Positions 14,028 to 30,466 of a DNA stretch of 47,042 bases are shown here, one piece after another. Positions within the stretch are counted from its first letter, which is position 1, and each line of letters begins with the position of its first letter. A program made the position numbers and the translations under genes. The notes beneath the pieces are model-generated. The model ran no database searches. It saw nothing but the letters and a program-made list of their open reading frames with translations, and was not told the origin of the DNA. Source of the stretch: a virus; the IMG/VR virus record IMGVR_UViG_3300046692_000583, positions 1-47,042 of that record. One strand, given 5' to 3'.

Positions 14028-15035
14028 CTATGATTTAAATCGGACCACCTCTTCCCCTATCCAGCAGTTAATCTGCGATATTCTTGATTGAATTGGCTCT
14101 AACTCATTCATGACCCAAACTTCCGTAGCCTCCCGAATCGAGCCAAATCCTCCCGCATTTTGAGGGACGATCCCCATCAACTGAGGCGGTATGCGCAAGC
14201 TGGCCAGCACATCATCACGGGTCTGATTTTTGATAGAGTTGAATTCGTCCTTCGCCGCGACCTCGCTAACTGGAATCAACTGGATGCCGTCCTTCTTGCC
14301 GGTCGGAGAATAGACGAACAGATTGCGAAAATTCCCTGGCCCCTTTGACTCCTTGAGCGCCTTGCGCAGAGCATCGATATCGGCCTCCGTCTGCGCGGCG
14401 TCGGTCATGTACAGAATGAAGCCGGCATGACTGCCGTTCTCGTAGTACTTGCGCCGGAACAGTGTCGCCGACTCGTTGAGCAACGCCGACTGCAAGGCGC
14501 TAACCCACTCTGGAAGTCCATAAATCTCCTGGTGCAAATCCGCCTCTCGCAGGTGGAAAATAGTGCCTGGCTCAAAAGCATGTTCATCTTTCCAGCCGCG
14601 TACTTGGAAATACCGCCCGTCCGGACCGGCGCGCATGTATTTGGCCAGCGGCGGCGCCAGTTGCCAGGTGTTTCCCAACACCGACCGCTGCGCTTCCAAG
14701 TAGCCATTGCCCAGACACAGAAAGTCCAGGGCGAACTGTTCGAAAGCCGTACGGGTAAACAGCGGATGGGGGATAAAGGTCTTACTCAACAGGTTGCGTT
14801 TGAACATCAGCCCCGAGTGCAAATGCACACTAGCCCCTACCGATCGGGCCAGGCCATCAAGCGATAGTGGTGGCTCGTACCAACGCCCGTTGAACCAGCA
14901 CTCCAAGTAGTCGAATACCTCCCTACCGCCCAATACCGGCGACGGTTCGCCAAAGCTGAATACCTGAGTTCCGGTCCCGGCGTCGGGTTTGATCGCGGGC
15001 AACGGTGCCTGGCTGGTGAGCTGTTCAGTCATCAA
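14028..15035 (-). CDS. Q: P2 gpQ-like portal protein
   Basis: A 335-residue protein of the length of P2 gpQ. Family features are the N-terminal FSFGEPSPVL segment, the EYLECWFNGRWYEPP-type region, RRKYYENGSHAGFILY, and the C-terminal GGFGSIREA(T)EVW motif typical of phage portal proteins in this branch. The dodecameric portal sits at the capsid vertex and is the channel for DNA packaging. The gene overlaps the stop of P by four bases (ATGA) and both are transcribed leftward towards cos, as in P2. Confidence 0.95.
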   Translation of the reverse strand: MMTEQLTSQAPLPAIKPDAGTGTQVFSFGEPSPVLGGREVFDYLECWFNGRWYEPPLSLDGLARSVGASVHLHSGLMFKRNLLSKTFIPHPLFTRTAFEQFALDFLCLGNGYLEAQRSVLGNTWQLAPPLAKYMRAGPDGRYFQVRGWKDEHAFEPGTIFHLREADLHQEIYGLPEWVSALQSALLNESATLFRRKYYENGSHAGFILYMTDAAQTEADIDALRKALKESKGPGNFRNLFVYSPTGKKDGIQLIPVSEVAAKDEFNSIKNQTRDDVLASLRIPPQLMGIVPQNAGGFGSIREATEVWVMNELEPIQSRISQINCWIGEEVVRFKS

Positions 15036-16789
15036 TAGATCTCCATCCGCCCGGTATTGGCAGCCGTCTGCCCCTCAAGCGGTTCGTTGTGCAAAGCATG
15101 AAAAAGTGCCCACGCCAGATCGGCATGACCGGTGTTGTCATTGCGCCCAGCGGTGTAGGTGTACTGGCGCCCGCCAGCGGTGACGGTCTTGCGAATAGCC
15201 ATCAGCGACTGCGCCATGTCAGTCCAGCCGGCATCGAACTCCAGCCGCCCCTTGTGGATAACGTCATAGGCCTTGAGCACGAGGCGCGTTTTGACCTCGG
15301 GCGAATAGCTGAAGGCGGTGACGGCCGGGAAGAACTGACGCACTAGCTGGGCCACGCCGCAGCCCAGACCGGTGACGTCGATGCCGATATAGGTCACCCA
15401 ATAGCGGTCGCACACGCTCTTGATAAACGCGGCCTGCGCAGCGAAGTCCATGCCGCGAAACTGGTGCCGCTCAAGGACGCGAAACTTCCCGCCCGGCACC
15501 AACGGCGGCGCAACCACCACCAGCCCCGAACAATCGCCCGTCTCAGCAGGGTCATACCCCACCCATACCTGACGATCGCCAAACGGGCGCATGGCAAACG
15601 GCTTGTAGTCCTCGGCCCATTCAACCCAACTATCGACCATGCACGACTGCAACAATGTCAGCGGGAAGATGCTCGCCCCATCGTCGATAAACTCGCACAT
15701 CAGCAGATTGGCGAACGCCTCGGCGCTGTACTCCCGACGCAGTTCCTCAAGGTTAAATTTGTCGCAGCCGCCCTGCCGCGCATCCAGAATCGTGACGATG
15801 TGCCGCCACAGCTGGTCCTCACAAAACCGCCCCTGCTGGAGCGCGCCGTGGGACACATCCACCTTCGTATGCTGCGCGGCCGGCAGGCCCTTGTTAAAGC
15901 GTTCGCCGGTCCAGAAGCTGTAAGCCTCGTGGGCCATGCTGGAAGGCGTCGAGAAGTAGGTCTTGCGCCACTTACTGTGCATCGCCATGCCCGACGCGAC
16001 GTTGTTCAGTTCCTCGAACTTGAACGTCCAGAAGAACTCATCGAAGTAGAAATTACCGTGGTACCCCTGGGCGGTACGGGCATTGGTTCCGAGGAAAAAC
16101 AACTCGGCACCATTGGGCAAGACGATGGGATCGCCCGTCAGATCAACCCCGATCACCTCACGGGCAAACGCCAGAATGTAGCCGCGAAACAGATAGGCCT
16201 GGTTCTTCGACGCCGAGAGAAAAATCTGATTGCGCCCGGTCTCCAGGGCATCAATCAACGCCTCACGGGCGAAGTAGAACGTCGCGCCGATCTGCCGGCT
16301 CTTGAGGATGACGCGGGTGCGCTGATTACCGGCCCGATACCAATCTTTCTGGTAGTCATAACAGCCATCGATAAACGCTTCGCGAAGCAGCTCGACCTGG
16401 TCTTCACTGATGTCGTTCTTCGGTTTTTTCTTCTTCGGCCCTTCGTTGCGTTTGGCCAGATTCGGGTTGAGGTCGGTTTCGGTACCGCCGCCCTGAAAGC
16501 GCTGGATACGCGCCTGCCGCTCCAATTGCCGATGCAGCAGATCAATTTCCTTGAAGTCCCCGCTGGTCTTGCCCTCCTTGAGGATCAACTGCACCAACCG
16601 CGCTTCCAACGCACCACCGATGCGCTCGACGTTATCCGCCCGATCCCACTCGTCTCGGGCCTTCCAACTGTGTAGCGTTTTCTCCTTCTCGCCCGTCGCC
16701 TCGGCGATCTCGCAGACACGCCAGCCCATCCAGTACAGGAACTTGGATTGGCGGCGGGGATCGATGGGCAAGAGCGCGGTCGTAGTCAT
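15032..16789 (-). CDS. P: P2 gpP-like terminase large subunit (ATPase)
   Basis: A 585-residue protein, the usual length for gpP. The N-terminal 60 residues contain a helix-turn-helix-like segment (CEIAEATGEKEKTLHSWK). The motor domain follows, with the modified Walker A KSRQIGAT (about residue 165) and YFDEFFW as Walker B. The C-terminal nuclease-like part includes WVGYDPAETGD. It powers packaging together with gpM and cuts at cos. It is divergent from O; the shared 138-base gap holds an Ogr-type dyad at 16836-16856. Confidence 0.96.
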   Translation of the reverse strand: MTTTALLPIDPRRQSKFLYWMGWRVCEIAEATGEKEKTLHSWKARDEWDRADNVERIGGALEARLVQLILKEGKTSGDFKEIDLLHRQLERQARIQRFQGGGTETDLNPNLAKRNEGPKKKKPKNDISEDQVELLREAFIDGCYDYQKDWYRAGNQRTRVILKSRQIGATFYFAREALIDALETGRNQIFLSASKNQAYLFRGYILAFAREVIGVDLTGDPIVLPNGAELFFLGTNARTAQGYHGNFYFDEFFWTFKFEELNNVASGMAMHSKWRKTYFSTPSSMAHEAYSFWTGERFNKGLPAAQHTKVDVSHGALQQGRFCEDQLWRHIVTILDARQGGCDKFNLEELRREYSAEAFANLLMCEFIDDGASIFPLTLLQSCMVDSWVEWAEDYKPFAMRPFGDRQVWVGYDPAETGDCSGLVVVAPPLVPGGKFRVLERHQFRGMDFAAQAAFIKSVCDRYWVTYIGIDVTGLGCGVAQLVRQFFPAVTAFSYSPEVKTRLVLKAYDVIHKGRLEFDAGWTDMAQSLMAIRKTVTAGGRQYTYTAGRNDNTGHADLAWALFHALHNEPLEGQTAANTGRMEIY

Positions 16790-16835
16790 GGCTGCGATGC
16801 TGCCGCCCAGATCCGCGACTCAATAGCGCCGCCCC

Positions 16836-16856
16836 TTGTGCCCTCCCCGTCTACAG
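16836..16856 (+). promoter_or_regulatory. Ogr-type activator dyad upstream of O (and P)
   Basis: TTGTG-N11-TACAG matches the dyads at 23603-23623 and 28193-28213 in spacing and arms (common form TGT(G/A)-N11-TACA). In P2, Ogr binds such a dyad around -55 of each late promoter. Here it lies 82 bases (centre to start codon) before O, inside the P/O divergent gap. Confidence 0.65.
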
Positions 16857-16927
16857 TCCTGCCTCGTTGCCGCCGCCCGCGCGCGTCCCGAACATGCCCT
16901 CATTGCAACGCACAGAGCATTCCCGGC

Positions 16928-17758
16928 ATGAAGAAATTTCGCAGCAACTGGTTCCGCGTCGCCGTCGAAGGCGCGACCTCGGACAAACGCACCATCAAAC
17001 GCGACTGGCTGGAACAGGCCGCGAAGAACTTCAACCCCTCCACCTACGGCGCCCGCATCTGGCTGGAGCATTTCCGCAGCCTGCTGCCGGATAGCCCGTT
17101 CAAGGCCTACGGCGACGTCCTCGCGGTCAAGACCGAAGAAATCGACATCAACGGCCAAAAGAAACTGGCCCTGTTCGCCCAGGTCGAGCCCACCGCCGAC
17201 CTGATCGCCATGAACAAGGCCAAGCAGAAGATCTACACATCAATCGAAATCGACGACAGCTTTGCCGACACCGGAGAGGCCTACATCGTCGGTCTGGCCG
17301 TTACGGACTCCCCCGCCAGCCTTGGCACCGACGTACTCGCCTTCTCAGCGCAAAAGCCCGACGTCAGCCCCTTCAAAGACCGGCACTACTCCGCAACCTC
17401 GATGTTCACCGAGGCCGTCGAAGCCGAACTGACATTCGAAGAGTTTGAAGAAAAGCCCAGCCTCGGCGCCCAGCTCTTCAGCAAGGTGCAAACACTGCTC
17501 AAAGGCAAACAGGCCAAGGATGACAGCGAGTTCGTCCAGATCGGCCAAGCCGTCGAAACCATCGCCGAACACGTCAAAGACCTGCCCGATCAACTGGCCG
17601 CGGAGAAACAGTTTTCCGCAGAACTGAAAACGCAGCTCGACCGGTTGGCCAAGGACTTCACCGAACTGAAAACCAAGCTCTCGACCACCCAGGACCACAA
17701 CCAAAAGACACGCCCTCCCGTCACTGGCGGCGGAAACCACGTCATGACCGACTGCTGA
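16928..17758 (+). CDS. O: P2 gpO-like capsid scaffold and maturation protease
   Basis: A 276-residue protein from ATG 16928; the frame is open upstream but the family begins KKFRSNWFRVAVEGATSD. The N-terminal ~160 residues are the serine protease half (AKQKIYTSIEIDDSFADTGEAY, GLAVTDSPASLGTD). The C-terminal half is an acidic/Lys-rich scaffold with a coiled coil (about 225-260) and a low-complexity tail. It assembles the procapsid and processes gpN, gpQ and itself. Next is N after 17 bases. Confidence 0.95.
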   Translation: MKKFRSNWFRVAVEGATSDKRTIKRDWLEQAAKNFNPSTYGARIWLEHFRSLLPDSPFKAYGDVLAVKTEEIDINGQKKLALFAQVEPTADLIAMNKAKQKIYTSIEIDDSFADTGEAYIVGLAVTDSPASLGTDVLAFSAQKPDVSPFKDRHYSATSMFTEAVEAELTFEEFEEKPSLGAQLFSKVQTLLKGKQAKDDSEFVQIGQAVETIAEHVKDLPDQLAAEKQFSAELKTQLDRLAKDFTELKTKLSTTQDHNQKTRPPVTGGGNHVMTDC

Positions 17759-17775
17759 CACCAAGGACGACTTCC

Positions 17776-18786
17776 ATGCGCAACGACACCCGCAACCTCT
17801 TCAACGCCTACCTCGGCCAATTGACCAAACTGCACGGCGTCCCCGACGTCACCACCAAATTCGCCACCGCCCCCAGCGTCACCCAGACACTGGAAACCCG
17901 CATGCAGGAATCCAGTCAGTTCCTCAGCGCGATCAACATCTATGGCGTCACCGAGCAGATGGGCGAAAAGATCGGCATGGGCATCGGCGGGCCGAACGCC
18001 GGCACTACCGACACCACCCAGAAAGACCGCGAAACCACCGACATCACAACCCTCGATGACCGCGGCTACTTCTGCTCACAGACCAACTTCGACACTCATC
18101 TGCGCTACAGCAAGCTGGATGCCTGGGCCAAGTTCCCCGACTTCCAGGCGCGCATCCGTGACGCGATCCTGAAACGCCAGGCGCTGGACCGCATCCTGAT
18201 CGGCTGGAACGGCACCAGCCGCGCCGCCACCTCAAACCCGGCGACCAACCCACTGCGCCAGGACGTCAACATCGGTTGGCTGCAAAAGATGCGCACCGAA
18301 AACGCCGCGCGGGTGATGAAGGAAATCGCTGAAGGCTCAGCAAAAATCGCCATCGGCATCGGCAAAGACTTCACCAACCTCGATGCCCTGGTGTTCAGCA
18401 TGGTCGAAGAGTTCATCGCGCCCTGGTACCAGGAAGATCCGGATCTGGTGGTGATCTGCGGCCGCCAGCTGCTGGCCGATAAATACTTCCCGATCATCAA
18501 CAAGGACAACGCCCCAAGCGAGATGCTGGCCGCCGACATCGTCACCAGCCAGAAACGCCTGGGCAACTTGCCGGCGGTGCGCGTGCCGTACTTCCCGGCA
18601 CGCGGACTGCTGGTGACCAAGCTCGAAAACCTGTCGATCTACTGGCAGGAAGGCAGCCGCCGCCGCACCGTCCTCGACAACGCCAAGCGCGACCGCATCG
18701 AAAACTATGAGTCAGTCAACGACGCCTACGTGATCGAGGACCTGGAATGCGCAGCCCTCGCTGAAAACATCGAAATCGCATCGTAG
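17776..18786 (+). CDS. N: P2 gpN-like major capsid protein
   Basis: A 336-residue protein of P2 capsid length. Recognisable parts are the N-terminal NLFNAYLGQLTKLHG with the cleavable region that follows, DRGYFCSQTNFDTHLRYSKLDAWAKF, RQALDRILIGWNG, and the C-terminal NYESVNDAYVIEDL. The HK97-fold shell protein is cleaved by gpO during maturation. Codon use is strongly GC-biased like the other late genes. Confidence 0.97.
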   Translation: MRNDTRNLFNAYLGQLTKLHGVPDVTTKFATAPSVTQTLETRMQESSQFLSAINIYGVTEQMGEKIGMGIGGPNAGTTDTTQKDRETTDITTLDDRGYFCSQTNFDTHLRYSKLDAWAKFPDFQARIRDAILKRQALDRILIGWNGTSRAATSNPATNPLRQDVNIGWLQKMRTENAARVMKEIAEGSAKIAIGIGKDFTNLDALVFSMVEEFIAPWYQEDPDLVVICGRQLLADKYFPIINKDNAPSEMLAADIVTSQKRLGNLPAVRVPYFPARGLLVTKLENLSIYWQEGSRRRTVLDNAKRDRIENYESVNDAYVIEDLECAALAENIEIAS

Positions 18787-18796
18787 GCAGACGACC

Positions 18797-19495
18797 ATGA
18801 CCAACCCCTGCCGTCATCACTTCCTGCGCGTCACGGCCGCCATTGAAGCCGCCGCGGTCGAACCCAACCAGACCATGGCCGGCGCGACCGCCTACGAACA
18901 TCAACTCAACCAAATGCTGCAAGATCGCTTGCGCCTGAAACAGATCCAGTCCAATCAGGGCAAGGCCGAACTCAAACGCCAGCTGCTCCCTGAATACGTG
19001 CCCTACGTGCAAGGTGTGCTGGAAGCCGGGCTCGGTGCGCAAGATGAAGTGCTAACCACCATCATGGTCTGGCGCTTCGATGCCGGCGACTTCAGCGGTG
19101 GCCTCGACATTGCCGAGTACGTGCTGAAACACAAAATGGTCATGCCGGATCGCTTCGCCCGCACGTTGGGCTGCCTGGTCGCCGAAGACATTGCCACGGC
19201 GGCGTTGAGTGCCCAGAAGATCAACGAACCGTTCGACCTGGCCACCCTGCATCGCGCTGCCGAACTGACCGACACCGAAGACATGCCCGACCAGGCCCGC
19301 GCCAAGCTGTTCCTCGCCATAGGCCGCGCCACCCTGGAAGGCATCACCGAAGAACTACCCGGCCCACCCGGTCAAGTTCAGGCCGGCATCGACTTGCTGA
19401 AAAAAGCCATCGAGCTGCACGACGCCTGCGGTGGCAAAAAAGATCTGGAGCGGGCCGAACGCCTGCTCAACAAACTCGCCGCCATCAGCGGCTAA
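18797..19495 (+). CDS. M: P2 gpM-like terminase small subunit (endonuclease)
   Basis: A 232-residue protein matching gpM in length and in place between N and L. Typical are a central MVWRFDAGDFSGGLDIAEYVLKH segment and a C-terminal helical stretch (AIELHDACGGKKDLERAERLLNKL). With gpP it forms the cos-cutting terminase. Start ATG 18797 is 10 bases after the N stop. Confidence 0.95.
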   Translation: MTNPCRHHFLRVTAAIEAAAVEPNQTMAGATAYEHQLNQMLQDRLRLKQIQSNQGKAELKRQLLPEYVPYVQGVLEAGLGAQDEVLTTIMVWRFDAGDFSGGLDIAEYVLKHKMVMPDRFARTLGCLVAEDIATAALSAQKINEPFDLATLHRAAELTDTEDMPDQARAKLFLAIGRATLEGITEELPGPPGQVQAGIDLLKKAIELHDACGGKKDLERAERLLNKLAAISG

Positions 19496-19598
19496 CCGAG
19501 CGTCCCCACGCACCCCGCCGGCTCGGGGCGGATCGGTCAGGCCACGTACCTGAACGTGAAGTCCCGACCACCGGCGACCTATTGCAGAGTGCAGATCC

Positions 19599-20060
19599 AT
19601 GAGCGGATTCATAGCGGGCGGAAAGGTCCCCACCGGCCACATCAACACCGACCCTTTTTGGCCATCGATCGAACTGGACGACGTGCGCGGCACGTTGAGA
19701 ATCGATTCCAGCGTCACCGCCATCCGACTGGAAACCGCGACCATCGCCGCCGCGATCAGCGTCAACCGCGAGTTGGCCGAGTGGCGCCGTACCAAACAGG
19801 TCGAGGGCTACACCACCCTCACCGACGTCCCCGCCAATCGGGTCAAAAACATATCGCAGTACGCCCACCTGTACCAACGGGCGATCTATGCCGCAACCGG
19901 TGCCGAAATCTGCGAGCGCTATCGCTCCTACGACAGCACCAACAGCGGCAACCACAACGCCGACGACCTGACCCCGAGCATCGATGAGCTACGACGTGAT
20001 CAGCGCTGGGCCGTGCGCGACTTCCTCGGCCTCGGCCGCACCACTGTGGAGTTGATCTGA
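19599..20060 (+). CDS. L: P2 gpL-like head completion/stabilisation protein
   Basis: A 153-residue protein. The P2 gpL pattern is visible: an acidic N-terminal part (NTDPFWPSIELDDVRG), then a helix with VRLETA-like residues, and the C-terminal IDELRRDQRWAVRDFLG(R) segment typical of this family. It joins the portal region to the tail after packaging. The stop overlaps the start of X by one base. Confidence 0.94.
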   Translation: MSGFIAGGKVPTGHINTDPFWPSIELDDVRGTLRIDSSVTAIRLETATIAAAISVNRELAEWRRTKQVEGYTTLTDVPANRVKNISQYAHLYQRAIYAATGAEICERYRSYDSTNSGNHNADDLTPSIDELRRDQRWAVRDFLGLGRTTVELI

Positions 20061-20272
20061 TGGCCGTCACCGTTCGCGCCCAGCAAAACGACACCGTGGA
20101 TGCCCTCTGCTGGCGGCATTACGGCCGGACCGCTGGCGTGACCGAAGCCGTACTTGAAGCCAATCCCGGACTGGCGGACCACGGGCCGACATTGCCCCAA
20201 GGCCTGGCCATGCACATGCCCGAAACACAAGTCGCAGCCCCTCAACGGCAGAGTGTGAACCTATGGGACTGA
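20060..20272 (+). CDS. X: P2 gpX-like tail protein
   Basis: A 70-residue LysM-like protein beginning AVTVRAQQNDTVDALCWRHYGRT, which is the usual form of gpX. These small proteins act in tail assembly, probably at the baseplate. It is the last recognisable gene before the region where the lysis cassette would be expected. Confidence 0.93.
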   Translation: MAVTVRAQQNDTVDALCWRHYGRTAGVTEAVLEANPGLADHGPTLPQGLAMHMPETQVAAPQRQSVNLWD

Positions 20273-20358
20273 ATACACGGCAACTAAAGTCGCCAGCGAC
20301 AGCCCAGGCCGAGCTTCAATTACTGATACTTCGACGTTACTTCGCTCTTTTAACCCTA
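20263..20358 (+). pseudogene. Truncated ORF overlapping the end of X
   Basis: ATG 20263 overlaps the X stop (ATGGGACTGA), the arrangement expected for a coupled next gene. The frame runs only 31 codons with no membrane or enzyme character and stops at 20356-20358. I interpret it as the front of a lost lysis-region gene or as a chance frame. Confidence 0.35.
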
Positions 20359-20362
20359 TAAA

Positions 20363-20692
20363 TCAATCCAACTCATCCAGCCCAGACATATACTGCTTTA
20401 AAAATAAACTTTTCAAATGATTGTAGCCAATCTGGTTAACCTCATATTGGTAAGTTACTGCATTAGGCCCCACTGTCATTGGATCTGTAGCATAGAAAAT
20501 AACACCATTAGACGGATCACTATAACTTAACACATCCCACTGACCCAAATACTTAACAGCAGTAACCTTTATAGTATTTGTTTGAAAATAGAGCGTCGCA
20601 TGATCCTTAGTCCTTGCAGGAACGGGATCAAGCACCACCTCATCATAACCATCCTTAACAGTCACAGAAAAAAACATTGACTTCTTCGCCAT
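20363..20692 (-). CDS. Hypothetical protein replacing lysis region (second gene)
   Basis: A 109-residue protein with a good ribosome binding site (GGAG six bases before ATG 20690-20692). Composition suggests a beta-rich soluble protein: many Tyr, Val, Thr and Asp residues, and no cysteine, signal peptide or transmembrane helix. I recognise no family. The gene is AT-rich and lies opposite to the late genes, so it should be expressed in the lysogen. It follows the gene at 20760-21020 by 67 bases, probably on one transcript. Confidence 0.72.
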   Translation of the reverse strand: MAKKSMFFSVTVKDGYDEVVLDPVPARTKDHATLYFQTNTIKVTAVKYLGQWDVLSYSDPSNGVIFYATDPMTVGPNAVTYQYEVNQIGYNHLKSLFLKQYMSGLDELD

Positions 20693-20759
20693 TACTTACT
20701 CCAACAAAATCAAAATCGCCTACTTATCTCACAGTAGCCCAATAACTCTAGGGAGCAAA

Positions 20760-21020
20760 TCACTCTCTGATTTCAACGATGCTTTTAATATCTAAATAAT
20801 CAATAAGCAATCGAGGTCCATCGCCTACTGCCACTTCACATACTCCATAGTATTCCCAGCCACCTTGTCCAGCGTTGTTACCAACCCGGTGACCACAGAT
20901 TAAGCCTTCGATTATTTTCTCATTATGCAGAATGATCTGAACACGGCCAAATATTGGGATATCACGATTAATCTGAGCAAACTGTTTCTGCTCATTATAA
21001 GATGAGGTCCATCGTGCCAT
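20760..21020 (-). CDS. Hypothetical protein replacing lysis region (first gene)
   Basis: An 86-residue protein preceded by an excellent ribosome binding site (AAGGAG, eight bases before ATG). The pattern FGRVQIILHNEKIIEGLICGHRVGN followed by a Trp/Tyr pair and DIKSIVEI suggests a small beta-barrel (Sm/SH3-like) fold, but this is only a visual impression. I know no homologue with a function. It is AT-rich and leftward, at the place of holin/endolysin genes in P2-like phages. Confidence 0.75.
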   Translation of the reverse strand: MARWTSSYNEQKQFAQINRDIPIFGRVQIILHNEKIIEGLICGHRVGNNAGQGGWEYYGVCEVAVGDGPRLLIDYLDIKSIVEIRE

Positions 21021-21482
21021 TTTATACTCCTTTCTTAACCCCGATTTTTTAAAAGATCAGAATTACACTTAAAGTTGTTTGATAGAGAAAACCGAGGCAA
21101 CGCTACTATTTTGGCATCATGCTGTCTAGCCCCCATCCTCAAAGAGTAGGAATAATCTCCCCTCCTGCGCGTCTGCCTGCTGAATCAGCGATCGTTTGTA
21201 GCCATTCCAGCTACAGATCTACGCAACGGAAAAAAGAAGCGCTTAACACCATTATCATCGCCATCAACAATCACCCGCCGACTAGCCTTTTCTGGCTGCT
21301 GGTGGGCCGCAGTAAGCCGCTGCCAGCTAATCTCGATACGCATCGAGTGCTTTCCGGTCGTGATGTTCTCTGCCAAGCGGAGCCGTTTCCATCATCGATG
21401 TATAACCAGCGGACCTACTAGATCCGCTTCATAGCCATCTGAGCAAAATGATCACTAAAGCCGAACATTCGAAGCTTCCTAC
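21021..21482. other. Gap between lysis-region replacement genes and R
   Basis: About 460 bases hold the promoter of the leftward pair at the left edge. A 100-codon rightward frame (21119-21421) has no lysis-protein features (no signal peptide, no lipobox, no catalytic motif), and its composition is not convincing. I looked for remnants of spanin genes before R and saw none I could defend. Confidence 0.5.
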
Positions 21483-21959
21483 ATGAATAAACCCGAAAGT
21501 CTCCGCACACACTTACTCGCTACAATCCCCGAACTCAAGCACAACCCTGACCGGTTACTAATGTTCATCGACAACGGCAAAGTTCGCTGCACTGCTGCGG
21601 CGAGCCTGTCGTTCGAGTACAGCTTCCACCTGCAGATCATCCTCACCGACTTCGCCGGCCATCCCGATAGCGTCATGCTGCCCGTGCTCGGTTGGCTGAG
21701 CGTGCATCAGTCCGAGTTGCTGGAGAACCTGAACAAATCCGCCGACGGTATCCAGTTCGAGGCCGACATCCTCGACAATAGCAAGGTCGATTTAAGCCTG
21801 AGCCTACCCCTAACCGAACGGGTGGTGGTGGGCAAGGACGACCAAGGCAACACCACCATTCGCCATCCAGGTGAACCACAGCAAGTTGCCGCGTTTCTCG
21901 ATCCACACTGGGTGCCGGGTGCCCAGCGCACCGGCAGTGAATGGGTAGTGCCGCAATGA
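21483..21959 (+). CDS. R: P2 gpR-like tail completion protein
   Basis: A 158-residue protein. The start (MNKPESLRTHL) and the segment FEYSFHLQIILTDFAGHPD...LPVLGWLSVHQSELL are typical of gpR. It completes the tail for head joining. The stop overlaps the start of S by 19 bases. Confidence 0.93.
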   Translation: MNKPESLRTHLLATIPELKHNPDRLLMFIDNGKVRCTAAASLSFEYSFHLQIILTDFAGHPDSVMLPVLGWLSVHQSELLENLNKSADGIQFEADILDNSKVDLSLSLPLTERVVVGKDDQGNTTIRHPGEPQQVAAFLDPHWVPGAQRTGSEWVVPQ

Positions 21960-22414
21960 CCAACCGGTTGGAAGCGCTGGAGGAATGGGCAGCAGGACTG
22001 CTCGGGCAACTTGAACCGGTATCGCGCAACAAGCTTGCCCGCAGCCTCGGCCAAGCATTGCGACGGAGTCAGCAGCAACGAATCATCGTCCAACGAAATC
22101 CTGACGGCAGCAAATACGCGCCACGTAAACAACGCAACCTTCGCGGTAAGCAGAGACGGGTTAAGCGAAGGGTCCAGATGTTTCAGAAACTGCGCACGGT
22201 CAGATTCTTGAAGGTTCAAGGTGATGGCAATACGATCAGCGTCGGATTCACCGGGCGCATTGCTCGCATTGCGCGGGTGCATCAGTATGGGCTAAAGGAT
22301 CGTGCTGAGCGTGGCACTCTAGACGTTACGTACGATAAACGGGAGTTATTAGGATTTACCGAAGCGGATCTTGATCTTATCCGCAACGGCTTACTGCTGC
22401 ACTTAACGAGCTAA
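21941..22414 (+). CDS. S: P2 gpS-like tail completion / virion morphogenesis protein
   Basis: A 157-residue basic protein of the phage virion morphogenesis family. Typical elements are the N-terminal LEEWAAGLLGQL, the RNPDGSKYAPRK motif, and the C-terminal ARVHQYGLKDR and LGFTEADLDLI. It acts with gpR in tail completion. The start at 21941 (MGSAAMTNRLEAL) could also be ATG 21956. Confidence 0.93.
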   Translation: MGSAAMTNRLEALEEWAAGLLGQLEPVSRNKLARSLGQALRRSQQQRIIVQRNPDGSKYAPRKQRNLRGKQRRVKRRVQMFQKLRTVRFLKVQGDGNTISVGFTGRIARIARVHQYGLKDRAERGTLDVTYDKRELLGFTEADLDLIRNGLLLHLTS

Positions 22415-22479: not shown

Positions 22480-23475
22480 TTAAACGGAATTTTTCTTGAT
22501 GGCTCGCAGTTCCACCATAAGCTTCTCACCCTCGGCGGTTAGCCCCCATAGAGGGTCAACCATATCGCCAACAACATTCGAAAGACCAATAGTTACTACA
22601 CCGAGAGCCTGTAGCTGAATGGCAACGGTTTGAAAGTCTTGATCTTGCAGTTCAGACATAATAGTGGGATAGCCCAATTGAGAGCAAACCGCTTCTAGCA
22701 ATACCCCCTTAACCGAGGATTCCTTCTGATGACTCATCAAATAAGGCGATATATAATAAAAAATCTTCCCCCATGTACACTTTGCGGCCCATCCAAAAGT
22801 TCGATTCCCATCCCAATGGCTCCCATTCAATGTAAACACATCATCAAAACCTGCCAAATCTGGCACATCGTAAATTGCCTTCTTTAACACCTTGACTTGA
22901 GCCAACTCTAAACCCAACTTGTCATTTTCTTTACGAAGTTCATTTATTTCTTTAAGGAGCTCTTCGCTAGATCCCTCGCTTGCGCGTATCCAACCCACAG
23001 CTGGAAAGGCCTTCATAGTTTTAACAAGGCTCAATGAAACCAAACCTGGTAGATCGCTAGGAGATGTCCAGTACTTAACGAGCCGCCCTTTCGAAACTTT
23101 ATCTCTAAAAGCTTGAAGTTTTTCTCTTGCCTCTTCGGAAATTTCTGACTTCTCAAGAGTCAGTTTATCCGGGCTACCGTGTAGCAAGGCCACTACCTTT
23201 ATACCCTTCTCTACTGCGTAATCGAACTCCATTTCTGTATAACTTAGCCCCTCAGCACCTACAGTGCCATACCTTCCGCCGACAATCAGAAGATAATAAT
23301 CGCAATCATCAATTATTTTCTTAATGAAGGCCCATTGCTCCTCATCAGTAGCAGGAAATAGCTCCATACCTGCGGGAATGCAATCCATCTCCATTAATAT
23401 TTGAGTTACATTCTTCCTTTCATCCATTAAATCTGTATATGTCGAACTTACGAAAACCTGATAGCGCTTATCCAT
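22480..23475 (-). CDS. DUF4062 (TIR-like fold) protein, candidate immunity moron
   Basis: A 331-residue protein. The first ~95 residues are a DUF4062 domain: [43 protein letters not shown] and [13 protein letters not shown]4062 is related in fold to TIR/SEFIR domains and is frequent at the N-terminus of NLR-type and other immune proteins. A coiled coil follows (about 185-215), then a ~110-residue C-terminal region with no recognised family. I chose ATG 23475, after a G-rich ribosome binding site; the frame opens at 23502. It lies opposite to the late genes between S and V, which is the orf30 cargo locus of P2-like prophages. Confidence 0.82.
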
Positions 23476-23602
23476 TCCCCACCCCATGCTGCCATGCGTC
23501 AAAATTTAATTGATATTCGGTGACATACCATCGTTCTGCATTGATTAACTGCAGCCTAACTTTGTACACGCTCTGGCGGGCGTCCGCACAGCCAAATTAT
23601 GA

Positions 23603-23670: not shown

Positions 23671-24243
23671 ATGAACGACTTATCCACCCTCGCCCGTCTG
23701 ATCGAAAACCTCATCCGCTTCGGCACCATCGCCGCAGTCCAGATGGCCCCACCACGCGTCCAGGTTAAATCCGGATCGCTGACCACCGCTTGGCTGCCAT
23801 GGATCGCCCCCCGTGCCGGAGCCGACCGCGAGTGGAATCCGCCAACCGTTGACGAACAGGTCATCCTATTCAGCCCATCCGGCCAACTCGGCAATGGCAT
23901 CGTCCTCACCGGTCTGTTTAGCGATCACATCCCCGCCAACGGCGACCGCGAAGGACTGCACCGCCGCACCTACCGTGACGGCGCCGTCATCGAATACGAC
24001 AGCGTCACCCACCACCTGAACGCCACCCTGCCCGAGAAAGGCACCACCAATCTGGTCAGTACCGGTGGCATCAACATCGTCGGCCCGATCACCCATAACG
24101 GCGACTACACCCAAACCGGCAACCAAACCATCACCGGCAAAATCACCGCATCCGTGGATGTGGTCGCGGCCAACATCAGCCTGGTCAAACACCCCCACGG
24201 CGGCGTCATGCCAGGCGGCGGCATCACAGGACTGCCACAGTGA
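23671..24243 (+). CDS. V: P2 gpV-like baseplate spike protein
   Basis: A 190-residue protein. The N-terminal OB-fold part contains MAPPRVQVKSGSLTTAWLPW and WNPPTVDEQVILFSPSGQL, characteristic of gpV. The C-terminal part has repetitive beta-helix spacing (TNLVSTGGINIVGP, GKITASVDVV) and ends HPHGGVMPGGG, where His residues can bind the tip metal. It is the membrane-piercing spike under the tail tube. Confidence 0.95.
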   Translation: MNDLSTLARLIENLIRFGTIAAVQMAPPRVQVKSGSLTTAWLPWIAPRAGADREWNPPTVDEQVILFSPSGQLGNGIVLTGLFSDHIPANGDREGLHRRTYRDGAVIEYDSVTHHLNATLPEKGTTNLVSTGGINIVGPITHNGDYTQTGNQTITGKITASVDVVAANISLVKHPHGGVMPGGGITGLPQ

Positions 24244-24584
24244 ACCGAGAAACCGGCGCCACCCTCGACCTAGTCGAACACATCACCCAGTCCGTCACCG
24301 ACATCCTGACCACCCGCCTCGGCACCCGCATCATGCGCCGCGAGTACGGCAGCTTGCTGCCCGAGCTGGTGGACCAACCGTTCAACGACTTCATCCGCTT
24401 GCAGGCGTACGCCGCCACCGTCATGGCGCTAATGCGCTGGGAGCCACGCATCAGCCTCAGTCGCCTGCAATTACTCGGTGCCACGTTGGCAGGCCAATCA
24501 ACGCTGGATCTTGAGGGCAGCATTGTTGATACCAATGAGCCGCTGAGCCTCAGCGTTCCCTTGCGACTGGGGGGTAGCGCATGA
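24240..24584 (+). CDS. W: P2 gpW-like baseplate protein (gp25 family)
   Basis: A 114-residue protein. The pattern HITQSVTDILTTRLGTRIMRREYGS is the gp25/gpW baseplate core, with the conserved EYGS(L) turn. It nucleates the sheath at the baseplate wedge. The start overlaps the V stop by four bases and the stop overlaps J. Confidence 0.95.
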   Translation: MNRETGATLDLVEHITQSVTDILTTRLGTRIMRREYGSLLPELVDQPFNDFIRLQAYAATVMALMRWEPRISLSRLQLLGATLAGQSTLDLEGSIVDTNEPLSLSVPLRLGGSA

Positions 24585-25498
24585 ACACCTTCGTCGCCAT
24601 CGACCTCAGCCAGCTCCCAGCACCACAGGTCGTCGAACAGATCGATTACGAGCAGATCCTTGCCGAGCGCAAAGCCTATGCCATCAGCCTCTGGCCAACC
24701 GAGGAACAGGCCGAAATCGCAGCACGCCTGAACATGGAATCGGAACCGCTGACCAAACTGCTCGAGGAAAACGCCTACCGCGAAATGATCTGGCGGCAGC
24801 GGGTCAATGAGGCATCAGCGGCGAACATGCTCGCCCTGGCCAAGGGCGCCGACCTGGAGAACCTCGCCGCCAACTACAACGTGAAGCGCTTGGTCATTCA
24901 GGTCGCCAACCCTTCAGCCGTGCCACCCATTCCCAAGCTGATGGAAAGCGACGACAGCCTGCGCGAACGTGCGCAAATGGCTTGGGAAGGGCTCAGTACA
25001 GCAGGCCCACGCAACAGCTACATCTTCCACGCACGTTCCGCCGACGGCCGCGTGGCCGACGCCACCGCAGAAAGTCCTAAACCCTCAGAAGCAGTCATCA
25101 CCGTGCAATCAGCACTGGGCGACGGCAGCGCCTCGGCGGATCTGCTGGCCGTGGTTAAAGCCTACCTAAGCGACGATGACCGCCGCCCATTAGGCGACCG
25201 CCTGAAGGTTCAAGGCGCACAGATCATCTATTACGAAATCAGCGCTGAACTTTACCTCTTAACATCGGGGCCAGAGTCAGAGCTGATCCTGAAAGCGGCC
25301 GAAGAACGGCTGCTGAAATTTGTGCATCAACGCCGTCGGCTGGGGCTGGAGATATCCGAATCCATCCTCCACGCCTCGCTGCACGTCGAGGGTGTACGCA
25401 AGGTGGTGCTGAACGAGTGGGAAGACATTGTCGCCACTCCTTACCAAGCCCCCTACTGCACCGACATCGACCTGTCACTGGGGCTTGATGATGACTGA
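24581..25498 (+). CDS. J: P2 gpJ-like baseplate assembly protein
   Basis: A 305-residue protein. The family begins with a Leu/Pro-rich segment followed by QIDYEQILAERKA, then YREMIWRQRVNEAS, ARSADGRVADA and a C-terminal beta-sheet part. It forms the baseplate wedge with gpW and gpI. It overlaps both neighbours by a few bases, showing a tightly coupled operon. Confidence 0.95.
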   Translation: MNTFVAIDLSQLPAPQVVEQIDYEQILAERKAYAISLWPTEEQAEIAARLNMESEPLTKLLEENAYREMIWRQRVNEASAANMLALAKGADLENLAANYNVKRLVIQVANPSAVPPIPKLMESDDSLRERAQMAWEGLSTAGPRNSYIFHARSADGRVADATAESPKPSEAVITVQSALGDGSASADLLAVVKAYLSDDDRRPLGDRLKVQGAQIIYYEISAELYLLTSGPESELILKAAEERLLKFVHQRRRLGLEISESILHASLHVEGVRKVVLNEWEDIVATPYQAPYCTDIDLSLGLDDD

Positions 25499-26114
25499 CC
25501 TGTCACTGCTCCCGCGCAACGCCACACCACTGGAACATCTAGCCGCTAATGCCCTGGCTCAGATCCAACGGGTCCCCATCCCGCTACGCCAGCTCTACAA
25601 CCCAGACCTCTGCCCCCTGCCCTTACTGCCCTATCTGGCCTGGGCTTTCTCGGTAGACCGCTGGGACAGCCAATGGCCCGAATTAGCCAAACGCTCAGCC
25701 ATCCGCTCCGCGTACTACATCCACTCGCGCAAAGGCACCCTCGGCTCCCTGCGCCGCGTCGTCGAGCCGCTGGGATTTGTGATTGAAGTCGTGGAATGGT
25801 GGCAGACCATTCCCCTCGGCCCACGCGCCACGTTTGCCCTGAACATCAGCGTCTCCGAATCCGGCATCACCGAAGAGATGTACCAGGAGCTGACCTGGCT
25901 CATCGACGATGCCAAGCCCCTCACCCGCCACCTGATCAGCCTCGACATCATTCTGGAAACCCGCGTCGATACCTATGCCGCAGTGGCCATCGATGACGGC
26001 GACGAAATCGATGTTTATCCGTGGGTGAACCCGGACATCGATGTATTCATTCAGGGCTATGGCGGCGCCAGCATTTACACCCTCGACGAATTGGACGTGT
26101 ACCTCCATGGTTGA
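25491..26114 (+). CDS. I: P2 gpI-like tail protein
   Basis: A 207-residue protein from ATG 25491 (an ATG directly before it at 25488 is in frame). The pattern LLPRNATPLEHLAAN, LPYLAWAFSVDRWDSQWPE, AYYIHSRKGTLGSLRRVVEPLGF is typical of gpI. It joins the wedge to the tail fibre. The last codons overlap the start of the fibre gene. Confidence 0.94.
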   Translation: MTDLSLLPRNATPLEHLAANALAQIQRVPIPLRQLYNPDLCPLPLLPYLAWAFSVDRWDSQWPELAKRSAIRSAYYIHSRKGTLGSLRRVVEPLGFVIEVVEWWQTIPLGPRATFALNISVSESGITEEMYQELTWLIDDAKPLTRHLISLDIILETRVDTYAAVAIDDGDEIDVYPWVNPDIDVFIQGYGGASIYTLDELDVYLHG

Positions 26115-27612
26115 TAAGAACACCCTTTTCGGCGGCATGCTCACCACCCTCGGAGCCGCCAAGAAAACCAACTGCGACGCCCTCGGTATTCCCTGGGAGC
26201 CGAGCTACATGCTGATCGGTGATGCCAACGGCACCGACCCGGTGCCAGACCCGGCGCAGATCCAACTGGTGAACCAGGTCTACCGTGCCCAGCTTAATCA
26301 GCTTTATGTGTCACCCACCGACAGCAAGGTATTGATCGCCGAGCTGGTGCTGCCACCTGACGTGGGCGGCTGGTGGATTCGCGAAGTGGCGCTCGAGGAT
26401 AAGGACGGTGTGTTTTCTGCAATTGCCAACATCGCCCCGAGCTATAAACCTCGGTTGGCACAAAACTCAGGGCGCAATCAGGTGGTGCGGATGCACATCA
26501 TCACCAACGGCACCGCCAACATTCAGCTCAAGATTGATCCGTCCGTTGTTCTGGCTACTCGCGACTATGTGGATCGGTCCGTCAATGCCGGCACAGCGTT
26601 CACCAATGTGTCGTCATCCAGAGCGCTAAAACCCAAAGAAATGGGCTTCGTGCTGATCGATGCAAGCGCTGGCGCGCTGAACGTTCAACTGCCAGCGGCC
26701 GACACCACAGTGGGCAAGCGTGACGTGATTGTTCACCGCAAAGACAACAGCATCAATCGCCTGGTCATCAAAGCCAAAGGCAAGGACACCCTGAAATTTC
26801 ATACTCACTTGAATCCATCGGGCTATCCCTTTCTGGTGCTGATGGGCGCGGGCGATTGGTGGCACTTGCGCAGCGACGGTGCCGGGAGTTGGTGGCCGAT
26901 TGGGCGCTTCGATAGCACAACGCTGGGTCGCCCAGTCTTCGAAACCACCACTGTGTTCAGCCCCGGTGGTTACGGTGCCATGAATGGGCAACTGCTTAAG
27001 CGGGATGAATGGCCATGGCTGTGGGACCACGCCCAACAATCGCTAATGCTTTACCCGGAAAAGCAGAAGTACCTGGAGGGTGCATGGACCTTCGGTGACT
27101 ACAAAACGACATTTCGAGTGCCCGAAGCACGAGGTGAATTTTTCAGGGTGCTCGACGATGACCGGCTCGTCGACAAATCGACCCTGAAGGGCGTCACGAA
27201 AGCCGGTAGCCCGGTCATTACCCAACTCAACGGGCGTGGGCGCGTAAAGATTGGTATGACGCTAGAGGGTGGCGACTTTCCGAACGGTACAACCGTTATT
27301 TCGGTCGGTGAATCGGACGTTACAGCTTCCACCGCATCACAAACGGATGGTCCTGGGGAGTGGCGAGTTGTCGGACGGATAGCTGGTTCGTGGACACCCG
27401 ACAATCTGGAGCGTCACACCCATCCCGTCTCTTTCGGATCAGGTAAGGGCGACCGGGTAGCCCTTATTCCCGCCTCCTCACTGGCTAGTGGTAACGCTCA
27501 TCTGGACCACGTAGTAGCCAGAAACACTTCACCCCCCTTCATCGGTCGCGTCGGTGACGAAGAAACCCGCCCCCGCAACATCGCCTATCCCGGCCGTATC
27601 AAAATGATTTGA
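26107..27612 (+). CDS. H: P2 gpH-like tail fibre protein
   Basis: A 501-residue protein from ATG 26107, eight bases inside gene I. The N-terminal ~160 residues are the baseplate-attaching fibre domain (FGGMLTTLGAAKKTN, YRAQLNQLY, GGWWIREVALED). A middle part follows with a beta-roll-like segment, and the C-terminal ~170 residues have a tail-collar fold ending ETRPRNIAYPGRIKMI. A stretch in the C-terminal third (about residues 355-440, GSPVITQLNGRGRVKIG) is a variable insertion type. It determines host adsorption with the next gene. Confidence 0.93.
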   Translation: MVDKNTLFGGMLTTLGAAKKTNCDALGIPWEPSYMLIGDANGTDPVPDPAQIQLVNQVYRAQLNQLYVSPTDSKVLIAELVLPPDVGGWWIREVALEDKDGVFSAIANIAPSYKPRLAQNSGRNQVVRMHIITNGTANIQLKIDPSVVLATRDYVDRSVNAGTAFTNVSSSRALKPKEMGFVLIDASAGALNVQLPAADTTVGKRDVIVHRKDNSINRLVIKAKGKDTLKFHTHLNPSGYPFLVLMGAGDWWHLRSDGAGSWWPIGRFDSTTLGRPVFETTTVFSPGGYGAMNGQLLKRDEWPWLWDHAQQSLMLYPEKQKYLEGAWTFGDYKTTFRVPEARGEFFRVLDDDRLVDKSTLKGVTKAGSPVITQLNGRGRVKIGMTLEGGDFPNGTTVISVGESDVTASTASQTDGPGEWRVVGRIAGSWTPDNLERHTHPVSFGSGKGDRVALIPASSLASGNAHLDHVVARNTSPPFIGRVGDEETRPRNIAYPGRIKMI

Positions 27613-27619
27613 GGTTCTG

Positions 27620-28183
27620 ATGATTACCTATTTGATTGACGAAGCAGGCGCGCTGTCTGGCCCAGTCACATTCCCGGCCATACCGGGGTTCGGCCCGCAA
27701 CTACCCGGCAATGCAGTGCAAGTTCCGAAAGTGCTTGCCCCACCAGAGACAGGCAAAACATGGGCGCTGCTCGATGGAGCAACCCAACAGATTTCCGACC
27801 ATCGAGGCACGGTGTTCCGCACGGCTGACGGCATGGAACAATCATGGCAACAGTTAGGCGAACTGCCCGAAGAACTGACAACACAGCCATGTCCCGGCGA
27901 ACACTTCAACTGGATCAATGAGCAATGGACACTCGACGAGTCCGCCCAACGCGCTGCGCAAAGCGCTCAAGTCTTGGATCATCGCGATAACCTGCAACGT
28001 GAAGCGCAACTGCGCATTGCCCCCCTTCAATACGCAGAGAAACTGGGCACCGCCACACCAGAGGAACAGGCTTGTCTCGTGGATTGGATGCACTACAGCG
28101 TGGAGCTCAATCGCATCGAGCAACAAGCCCATTTCCCCAACGCCATTGAGTGGCCTATTCAACCCCAACAGCAGCACTGCTAA
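27620..28183 (+). CDS. Tail fibre assembly protein (gpG-like)
   Basis: A 187-residue chaperone-like protein of the Caudovirales tail assembly family. It has TWALLDGATQQISDHRGTVF, then FNWINEQWTLD, a helical region rich in Gln/Ala/Glu, and WMHYSVELNRIE near the C-terminus. It is normally needed to fold the receptor-binding tip of the preceding fibre. It starts 7 bases after the fibre stop. Confidence 0.9.
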   Translation: MITYLIDEAGALSGPVTFPAIPGFGPQLPGNAVQVPKVLAPPETGKTWALLDGATQQISDHRGTVFRTADGMEQSWQQLGELPEELTTQPCPGEHFNWINEQWTLDESAQRAAQSAQVLDHRDNLQREAQLRIAPLQYAEKLGTATPEEQACLVDWMHYSVELNRIEQQAHFPNAIEWPIQPQQQHC

Positions 28184-28192
28184 ACCCGCTTG

Positions 28193-28213
28193 CTGTAGGC
28201 ATACCCTCTACAA
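28193..28213 (+). promoter_or_regulatory. Ogr-type activator dyad upstream of FI
   Basis: CTGTA-N11-TACAA has the same spacing as the dyads before O and V. It lies 87 bases (centre) before the FI start, right after the tail-fibre assembly gene, the place of the P2 late promoter for the F operon. Confidence 0.62.
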
Positions 28214-28245
28214 CCCACACCGCGCGACGAATTGACGTACGCGCG

Positions 28246-28285
28246 GCAGCCTGTGCACGGGCTCAACAATTACTGCACAGGCTGC
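28246..28285 (+). promoter_or_regulatory. Leader hairpin before FI
   Basis: GCAGCCTGTGCA (28246-28257) and TGCACAGGCTGC (28274-28285) form a perfect 12-base stem with a 16-base loop that ends five bases before the FI start. The right arm contains the only purine stretch near the start (CAGG), so the fold may mask the ribosome binding site or protect the 5' end of the late messenger. There is no T-run, so it is not a simple terminator. Confidence 0.7.
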
Positions 28286-28289
28286 TTCC

Positions 28290-29459
28290 ATGTCCGATTA
28301 TCTTCACGGCGTGCGCGTCATCGAACTCAACGATGGCTCACGCCCCATCCGCACCATCCCCACTGCCGTGATCGGCATGGTGTGCACCGCCGACGATGCC
28401 GACCCGACGGTATTCCCGTTTGACACCCCAGTCCTGATCACCAGCGTCCAGACCGCCATCGGCAAAGCCGGCGTAAAAGGCACCCTCGCCGTCAGCCTGC
28501 AAGCCATCGCCGACCAGACCAAACCCTACGTCATCGTTGTACGTGTCAAGGAAGGTCAGGACGAAGCCGAGACCACCAGCGCCCTGATCGGCACCACCAC
28601 CGAAACCGGCAAGTACACCGGGATGAAAGCCCTGCTCGCCGCCAAATCGCGGCTCGGCCTGGTGCCGCGCATTCTGGGTGTCCCAGGCTTGGACACCCTA
28701 CCCGTTGCCACCGCACTCGTGTCCATCGCCCAGCAACTACGAGCGTTCAGCTATGTCAGCGCTTGGGGCTGCAACACCAAGGAGGAAGCGGTCGCCTATC
28801 GCAAGAATTTCGGCGCCCGTGAAGTCATGGTCATCTGGCCGGACTTCCTGAGCTGGGACACCGTCACCAACAAGACCGTCAACGCCACAGCCGTCGCTCG
28901 CGCTCTCGGCCTGCGCGCCAAGATCGATCAGCAAACCGGTTGGCACAAAACCCTTTCCAACATCGCCGTCAACGGTGTCACCGGCATCAATGCCGACGTG
29001 TTCTGGGACCTGCAAAACCCCGCCACCGATGCCAACTACCTCAACAGTCACGAGGTCACCACGCTGATCAATGAGGGCGGCTTGCGCTTCTGGGGAAGTC
29101 GCACCTGCAGCGACGATCCGTTGTTTGCTTTCGAGAGCTACACCCGAACCGCTCAGGTATTGGCGGACACCATGGCTGGCACGCAGATGTGGGCCATGGA
29201 CAAGCCGCTGCATGCCTCCTTGGTGCGCGACATGATCGAAGGCGTCAACGCTGAGTTCCGCAGCAAGGTGTCCGCTGGTTACCTGATCGGCGGAAGCTGC
29301 TGGTACCCCGAAGACATCAACACCAAGGACACCCTCAAGGCCGGCAAGCTCTGGCTCGATTACGACTACACACCGGTCCCGCCGCTGGAAGACCTCACCC
29401 TGCGCCAGCGCATCACCGACCGCTACCTCATCAACTTCGCCAGCCAGATCAATCGCTAA
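28290..29459 (+). CDS. FI: P2 gpFI-like tail sheath protein
   Basis: A 389-residue protein of the P2 sheath size. Family signs include HGVRVIELNDGSRPIRTIPTAVIGMV at the N-terminus (here split by the reader limit as RVIELNDGSRPI and TAVIGMV), AWGCNTKEEAVAYR, GFWGSRTCSDDPLFAF-like GLRFWGSRTCSDDP, and a C-terminal PLEDLTLRQRITDRYL. It is the contractile outer sheath. The large antisense frame over this gene and FII is a shadow. Confidence 0.97.
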   Translation: MSDYLHGVRVIELNDGSRPIRTIPTAVIGMVCTADDADPTVFPFDTPVLITSVQTAIGKAGVKGTLAVSLQAIADQTKPYVIVVRVKEGQDEAETTSALIGTTTETGKYTGMKALLAAKSRLGLVPRILGVPGLDTLPVATALVSIAQQLRAFSYVSAWGCNTKEEAVAYRKNFGAREVMVIWPDFLSWDTVTNKTVNATAVARALGLRAKIDQQTGWHKTLSNIAVNGVTGINADVFWDLQNPATDANYLNSHEVTTLINEGGLRFWGSRTCSDDPLFAFESYTRTAQVLADTMAGTQMWAMDKPLHASLVRDMIEGVNAEFRSKVSAGYLIGGSCWYPEDINTKDTLKAGKLWLDYDYTPVPPLEDLTLRQRITDRYLINFASQINR

Positions 29460-29474
29460 CCGGAGAGCAGCGCC

Positions 29475-29990: not shown

Positions 29991-30017
29991 CCCTCCCGCA
30001 GCTATCTGGAAAACCTT

Positions 30018-30338: not shown

Positions 30339-30346
30339 AGGACGCC

Positions 30347-30466
30347 ATGGCTGACCTGGCCGTGGTCTTTCATTGGGCGCCGGCTGATATGGATCATCTG
30401 GGCCTGCAAGAACTGATGCAATGGCGCGAACGCGCCAGGGTGCGGAGCGTCGCCGATGGCGAATGA
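30347..30466 (+). CDS. E': P2 gpE'-like extension (GpE family)
   Basis: A 39-residue frame from ATG 30347 (ADLAVVFHWAPADMDHLGLQELMQWRERA) is the typical GpE/E' tail. It lies in the -1 frame relative to E and is open upstream as far as the slippery site. It is therefore mainly made as an E+E' fusion (30018-30466 with a shift near 30296), in analogy with P2. It overlaps the start of the tape measure gene by 11 bases. Confidence 0.9.
   Translation: MADLAVVFHWAPADMDHLGLQELMQWRERARVRSVADGE

What the first reader, a model, noticed from the sequence alone, without database searches (positions are those of the whole stretch)
20273..21482. Lysis cassette missing; two AT-rich leftward genes in its place
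P2-like phages have holin, endolysin and spanin genes between X and R. Here that interval holds two leftward genes with strong ribosome binding sites and no lysis features, and I find no endolysin elsewhere in the prophage. Either lysis depends on an unknown protein, on another prophage in the cell, or the element has been tamed. The two genes may be immunity morons that replaced the cassette.
Basis: partly seen in the sequence, partly recalled or inferred. Interest (0 to 1): 0.75.

Follow-up and report, generated by a model that had tools for sequence, protein, structure and literature searches.

The report
Intact phage whose lysis genes were replaced
A Pseudomonas P2-like prophage with an otherwise complete gene set has lost the genes that burst the host cell and carries two unknown foreign genes in exactly that place; close relatives lost theirs at least twice more, so these phages may rely on someone else's lysis genes, most likely the host's phage-tail bacteriocin cluster.

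Summary
Between X (stop 20272) and R (start 21483) lie only two leftward AT-rich genes, here called P1 (109 aa) and P2 (86 aa). Read-through profile scans of the non-structural stretches find no lysis gene. The closest relative (G001, ~92-99% identical) has holin plus muramidase there, and its homology to the window stops exactly at the end of X and resumes at R, so this is a clean cassette replacement. P1/P2 are real genes (dN/dS 0.06 and 0.18) but orphans: one other contig has them. P2 may have an Sm/Hfq-like fold (weak model).

The loss recurs: of 72 relatives with X and R on the contig, 22 lack the endolysin, 15 of them with X and R only 13-28 bp apart. A tree puts losses in at least three places. 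The endolysin-less clades keep complete late-gene sets under purifying selection like the others, and share no candidate replacement lysis gene.

Best reading: own lysis is dispensable here because a resident SOS-induced lysis module, probably the R-tailocin cluster, lyses the cell. One whole genome with such a prophage has that module (GH19 lysozyme plus Rz) intact. Not shown: induction, release, dependence, or P1/P2 function. Domestication remains possible; an unknown lysis protein is less likely.

The parts
20060..20272 (+). gene X (baseplate hub/tail protein X); left boundary of the replacement
   Evidence: Pfam PF05489 8e-27, PHROG 46; homology to G001 ends at 20272
20273..21482 (.). X-R interval: lysis cassette slot occupied by a foreign AT-rich segment (GC 0.43)
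   Evidence: no similarity to the holin/muramidase of G001, homology resumes at 21482
20363..20692 (-). P1, 109-aa orphan protein, second gene of a leftward pair
   Evidence: 97% identical homologue in L045/G016 only; dN/dS 0.065; no family
20760..21020 (-). P2, 86-aa orphan protein, first gene of the leftward pair; tentative Sm/Hfq-like fold
   Evidence: 88% homologue in L045/G016; dN/dS 0.18; AF2 pLDDT 53.5, Foldseek top hits nearly all Hfq at E about 0.14
21483..21959 (+). gene R (tail completion); right boundary of the replacement
   Evidence: Pfam PF06891 4e-50
21941..22414 (+). gene S (tail completion)
   Evidence: Pfam PF05069 2e-34
22480..23502 (-). DUF4062 gene in the S-V cargo slot
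   Evidence: Pfam PF13271 1e-28; slot holds different cargo genes in relatives
14028..20272 (.). intact head/packaging genes Q P O N M L X
23671..34923 (+). intact tail genes V W J I H tfa FI FII E T U D
34966..35978 (+). Com-like zinc ribbon (34966-35166) and Dcm-type cytosine methyltransferase (35127-35978); lineage marker shared by endolysin-less and two-gene-cassette relatives
   Evidence: PF10122 8e-18; methyltransferase PHROGs; 14/14 versus 0/22
36208..36453 (+). 81-aa hydrophobic Gly/Ala-rich protein, no family; only in this window; the one unplaced small membrane-like candidate
41037..41426 (-). HTH repressor
   Evidence: PHROG 8/2328, HTH_3 6e-7
41740..42039 (+). Ogr/Delta late activator
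   Evidence: PF04606 7e-17
42333..45107 (+). replication protein A
   Evidence: 98% homologue in G001
45138..46662 (.). excisionase (45138-45413 +) and integrase (45415-46662 -)
   Evidence: PHROG 1300 2e-32; integrase 70% identical to that of endolysin-less G037

Best explanation
The holin-endolysin cassette of an ancestor like G001 was swapped, precisely between X and R, for a leftward cargo pair (P2-P1). The rest of the phage (packaging, head, tail, Ogr, A, repressor, xis, int) stayed intact. The loss is tolerated because release does not need the phage's own endolysin: in these Pseudomonas hosts DNA damage also switches on a resident lysis module, most likely the holin/GH19 lysozyme/Rz set of the R-tailocin cluster by cinA-recA, or that of a co-resident prophage, which lyses the cell in trans. 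P2-P1 is then carried as ordinary prophage cargo, probably expressed in the lysogen and selected for a lysogen function such as interference with other phages. Shown: the absence, the exact replacement, the reality of P1/P2, the recurrence, and maintenance of late genes without endolysin. Inferred: trans-lysis, its source, and the function of P1/P2.
For: Exact junctions with G001. No lysis family in the element; the GH19 negative is meaningful because the same model does find the lysozymes of Pseudomonas genomes. 22 of 72 relatives lack the endolysin, 15 with X and R 13-28 bp apart and 4 with a holin alone. Tree: a clade of 9, a clade of 4 and the window, the last nested among holin+lysin relatives. 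Endolysin-less clades keep complete late genes, mostly with median dN/dS 0.02-0.2 as in endolysin-bearing clades, and use several integrase types. No gene common to the endolysin-less group resembles a lysis gene. 69 accessory proteins from endolysin-less records gave one holin and many defence-type families but no endolysin among the listed Pfam hits. Whole genome G320, with an endolysin-less prophage, has GH19 lysozyme and an Rz protein beside tail genes and cinA. Precedents: P. protegens CHA0 with its tailocin lysis enzymes but no particles lyses after mitomycin C (PMC7815802); Listeria prophage and monocin hol-lys modules are redundant (PMC6872733).
Against: No induction or virion data. 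The window's own host genome is not held, so its tailocin could not be checked. Tailocin lysis modules are near-universal in such hosts, so their presence is permissive rather than discriminating. No isolated phage close to this lineage is in the phage collection, which also fits non-productive elements. The window's own loss is recent, so its intact genes alone prove little; recombination with endolysin-bearing relatives could also keep late genes intact.
Confidence: 0.5

Rival explanations
1. The element is tamed: with its lysis genes gone it no longer makes a productive cycle and persists as a carrier of defence-type cargo for the host.
For: Lysis genes replaced by cargo; accessory genes in endolysin-less relatives are largely defence-type. 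No closely related isolated phage in the collection. The CHA0 myovirus prophage was not seen after mitomycin C and was called cryptic (PMC7815802).
Against: A clade of nine diverged endolysin-less prophages keeps complete packaging, head, tail and replication genes, with low dN/dS measured within the clade, i.e. after the inferred loss. Several integrase types among endolysin-less elements suggest continued movement.
Confidence: 0.3
2. The phage lyses with an unrecognised protein of its own, for example the 81-aa hydrophobic product at 36208-36453 acting as a single-gene lysis protein, or P1/P2 themselves.
For: 36208-36453 is small and hydrophobic and lies just downstream of the late operon. 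Six-frame profile scans cannot see unknown families.
Against: The 81-aa gene occurs in no relative examined, including other endolysin-less ones. P1/P2 occur in one other contig and run against the late operon. Genes common to all endolysin-less records are Com, Dcm and regulators, none lysis-like, and the same genes occur in records that have an endolysin.
Confidence: 0.12
3. P2-P1 is a toxin-antitoxin or plasmid-addiction-like pair whose benefit is retention of the prophage, and its insertion rather than cassette dispensability explains the loss.
For: Two small adjacent co-directional genes, AT-rich, under purifying selection.
Against: No similarity to any toxin or antitoxin family. Most other endolysin-less relatives have nothing in the slot (15 of 22), so an addiction insert is not needed to explain the loss.
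Confidence: 0.08

Closest known systems
P2-like Pseudomonas phages (Peduoviridae, Citexvirus; Dobby, Sirocco, D14A)
   Same: Gene order Q-P-O-N-M-L-X ... R-S-V-W-J-I-H-FI-FII-E-T-U-D with the same families; about 70-74% nucleotide identity in the stretches that align.
   Different: Dobby carries membrane protein, holin, muramidase and LysB between X and R, and the other listed ones have an endolysin there too; the window carries P1/P2. Whether they have the Com-Dcm pair was not checked.
IMG/VR record G001 (UViG_2784132072) and G009
   Same: 92-99% identical over most late genes, A, Com, Dcm.
   Different: Have Phage_holin_3_1 and a PF11860 muramidase in the X-R slot, and other cargo in the S-V slot.
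IMG/VR record G016 (UViG_3300014497_000028, 24 kb fragment)
   Same: Same P1/P2 pair in the same slot, Q to FI syntenic, 85-87% nucleotide identity.
   Different: Different cargo in the S-V slot and left of Q; ends in FI, so its early region is unknown.
G036 (UViG_2818991317)
   Same: Also two leftward genes in the X-R slot and no endolysin found.
   Different: Unrelated genes: an M48-type peptidase with a signal-like N terminus (315 aa) and a 286-aa protein.
Redundant lysis of prophage and tailocin (Listeria phi10403S/monocin; P. protegens CHA0)
   Same: A tail-like element's lysis genes can lyse the SOS-induced cell (PMC6872733, PMC7815802).
   Different: There the cohabiting phage keeps its own lysis genes (Listeria), or the prophage without tailocin did not lyse and gave no particles (CHA0); loss of the phage's own cassette was not reported in the passages read.

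Membership tests
P2-like temperate phage (Peduoviridae) | P2-type packaging, head and tail genes in P2 order | tested here: met
P2-like temperate phage (Peduoviridae) | A-type replication protein, Ogr, repressor, integrase/excisionase | tested here: met
P2-like temperate phage (Peduoviridae) | Holin-endolysin(-spanin) cassette between X and R | tested here: not met
   so it is a P2-like prophage lacking its own known lysis cassette
Relocated lysis cassette | Known endolysin elsewhere in the element | tested here: not met
Single-gene lysis | A product that lyses on its own | not testable with these tools
   needs expression assays; no family match for 36208-36453
Phage using lysis in trans | Resident lysis module in the host | tested here: inconclusive
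   Present in G320 and (GH19 plus a sub-threshold Rz hit) G055; window host not held
Phage using lysis in trans | Virions made and released only when that module is present | not testable with these tools
   experiment
Anti-phage defence system (P1/P2) | Match to a known defence family, or protection in an assay | tested here: not met
   No PADLOC, Pfam or PHROG match; protection itself not testable here
Sm/Hfq-like protein (P2) | Sm fold | tested here: inconclusive
   pLDDT 53.5; Foldseek prob about 1 but E 0.14, TM about 0.46; no sequence match

The most novel reading that the evidence does not exclude
There are lineages of full-size, still-mobile P2-like phages that have permanently given up their own lysis genes and exploit the host's R-tailocin (or another prophage's) lysis module, freeing the slot for cargo such as a new two-gene system with an Sm/Hfq-like member. 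They are autonomous for replication and particle assembly but dependent for release.
Probability: 0.35. Interest if true: 0.8.

Novelty: new variant of a known kind. Interest (0 to 1): 0.6.

Why it matters
Own lysis genes are treated as a near-universal requirement for tailed phages and are often used to call a prophage intact. About a third of the close relatives sampled here lack an endolysin in its usual place, with whole clades keeping conserved late genes. If they still release particles, lysis is a public good in polylysogenic or tailocin-bearing cells that phages can stop paying for, and calls of prophage activity based on lysis genes need revising. If they do not, they are a clear case of repeated domestication with long-term selection on late genes. 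Either answer can be had from one induction experiment. P1/P2 are in addition an uncharacterised cargo pair.

Tried and rejected
Relocated endolysin: four families across 18-19 prophage records plus Dobby, six-frame PHROG scans of the window, and Pfam on 69 accessory proteins of relatives; none found (four of 29 family names were not displayed). Lysis-gene remnant in the 21119-21421 rightward ORF: no family hit, and the frame is broken in the homologue. P1/P2 homologues in phages, plasmids, 399 Pseudomonas genomes and viral contigs: one contig only; three weak P2 hits (E about 0.008) judged chance. Structure of P1: model too poor to search (pLDDT 49.6). Promoters and terminators of the pair: sites found at about chance level. 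A lysis gene specific to the endolysin-less lineage: only com, dcm, a 57-aa ORF and regulators are lineage-specific. The com-dcm association (14/14 versus 0/22) is confounded by descent and is reported as a marker only. Papers: eight searches found no report of a recurrent lysis-cassette loss in P2-like Pseudomonas prophages; the library is not complete.

Full report
Setting. The window is a 47,042-base virus record holding a P2-like prophage: Q and P leftward (14028-16789), O to X rightward (to 20272), R, S, then V to D (to 34923), a Com-like gene and a Dcm methyltransferase, an early region with repressor (41037-41426 -), Ogr (41740-42039), A (42333-45107), excisionase (45138-45413) and integrase (45415-46662 -). 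Its relatives are Pseudomonas prophages.

The observation. Between the stop of X and the start of R there are 1,210 bases at 43% GC, against 60% for the genes to the left, with two leftward ORFs, P2 (20760-21020) and P1 (20363-20692), in that order of transcription, both with good ribosome sites. No lysis family matches them, and read-through PHROG scans of the non-structural stretches hit nothing of the lysis category. PF11860, PF00959, PF00182 and PF01510 are absent from the record. The GH19 search rang in no control when first run, but the same model later found lysozymes in 11 of 12 Pseudomonas genomes, so that negative is informative.

What happened. Against G001, the closest complete relative, nucleotide identity is 92% up to base 20272, nothing matches in the interval, and it resumes at 21482. 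G001 has Phage_holin_3_1 and a PF11860 muramidase there. The replacement is therefore exact at gene boundaries. P1/P2 occur in one other record, G016, at the same place, 97% and 88% identical, with P1 11 synonymous to 3 nonsynonymous and P2 13 to 10 changes: real, selected genes. They are otherwise orphans. The AlphaFold model of P2 is weak (pLDDT 53.5), but nearly all of its listed Foldseek matches are Hfq chains (E about 0.14, TM about 0.46), in line with an Sm-like reading of its sequence; this is a lead, not a result.

It is recurrent. Of 80 viral-contig relatives found by R, 72 have X and R on the contig: 50 have the muramidase between them, 15 have X and R 13-28 bp apart, 4 have only a holin, and one each has P1/P2, a LysB remnant, or another pair of leftward genes. 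Whole-record searches did not find the endolysin elsewhere in those that lack it. A tree of eight concatenated late proteins places endolysin-less records in a clade of nine, a clade of four (one member with a holin only), and at the window, which sits among holin+lysin relatives: at least three losses. One of the nine comes from a whole genome, G320.

They are not obviously decaying. Complete endolysin-less records have the full late-gene set and A. Median dN/dS within the two endolysin-less clades is mostly 0.02-0.2 per gene, similar to an endolysin-bearing clade; for the clade of nine, with the loss inferred at its base, this is selection after the loss, unless recombination with endolysin-bearing relatives contributed. 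Different integrase types are used.

No substitute lysis gene. Comparing 14 records that carry com-dcm with 22 that do not, the lineage-specific genes are Com, Dcm, a 57-aa ORF and regulators. Representative accessory proteins from the endolysin-less records match AbiV, FRG, Abi_2, ApeA, RnlA/B, KAP, kinase, reverse transcriptase and similar families, one holin, and no endolysin among the families listed. The window's 81-aa hydrophobic gene has no relative there.

Mechanism. The best-supported account is that the phage's own lysis genes are dispensable because the host supplies lysis under the same SOS stimulus. G320 and G055 carry a tail-like cluster next to cinA (and recA in G055) with a GH19 lysozyme and an Rz-type protein, the latter just below Pfam's cut-off in G055. 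In P. protegens CHA0, cells left with only the tailocin lysis enzymes lysed after mitomycin C, while a strain with only the myovirus prophage did not lyse (PMC7815802). In Listeria, prophage and monocin hol-lys modules are equally potent and redundant (PMC6872733). Against this, CHA0's myovirus gave no particles, so taming is a serious rival, and no isolated phage is close to this lineage.

Judgement. The absence and replacement are certain for practical purposes; trans-lysis is about even odds; taming about 0.3; an unknown own lysis protein about 0.1. The interest lies in the recurrence with preserved late genes, more than in this one prophage.

Noticed in passing
34966-35978: A Mu Com-like zinc ribbon followed by a Dcm-type cytosine methyltransferase after gene D, found in all 14 complete records with no endolysin or a two-gene lysis cassette and in none of 22 with the full cassette; descent confounds the association.
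   Followed up: partly
22415-23670: The S-V interval is a cargo hotspot: DUF4062 here, and FRG, AbiV-like, a multi-pass membrane protein, peptidases and nucleases in relatives.
   Followed up: partly
L080:4800-7005 (G036): A different leftward pair (M48-type peptidase with signal-like N terminus; 286-aa protein) occupies the same X-R slot in another endolysin-less prophage.
   Followed up: partly
36208-36453: 81-aa very hydrophobic Gly/Ala-rich protein with a good ribosome site, no family and no relative in the records examined.
   Followed up: partly
12124-13437: AT-rich AAA_21 ATPase (PADLOC AbiLi model, 8e-85) left of Q, where relatives carry other cargo genes.
   Followed up: no
38012-38858: Small antitoxin-like gene and GNAT acetyltransferase pair (TacA/TacT-like by arrangement), with a homologous pair in G027.
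   Followed up: no
5693-6835: A second tyrosine integrase, 33% identical to the prophage integrase, left of the prophage: probably another integrated element.
   Followed up: no
37188-37520 and 39911-40150: Two ORFs share the peptide VVGKIRELRK.VRL, suggesting a duplicated fragment in a gene-poor stretch of the early region.
   Followed up: no
L004, L005, L006, L017, L018, L028, L031, L034, L041 (X-R interval about 1.2 kb): The two-gene cassettes have holin and muramidase but no detectable LysB/Rz spanin, unlike the full cassettes of other relatives.
   Followed up: partly
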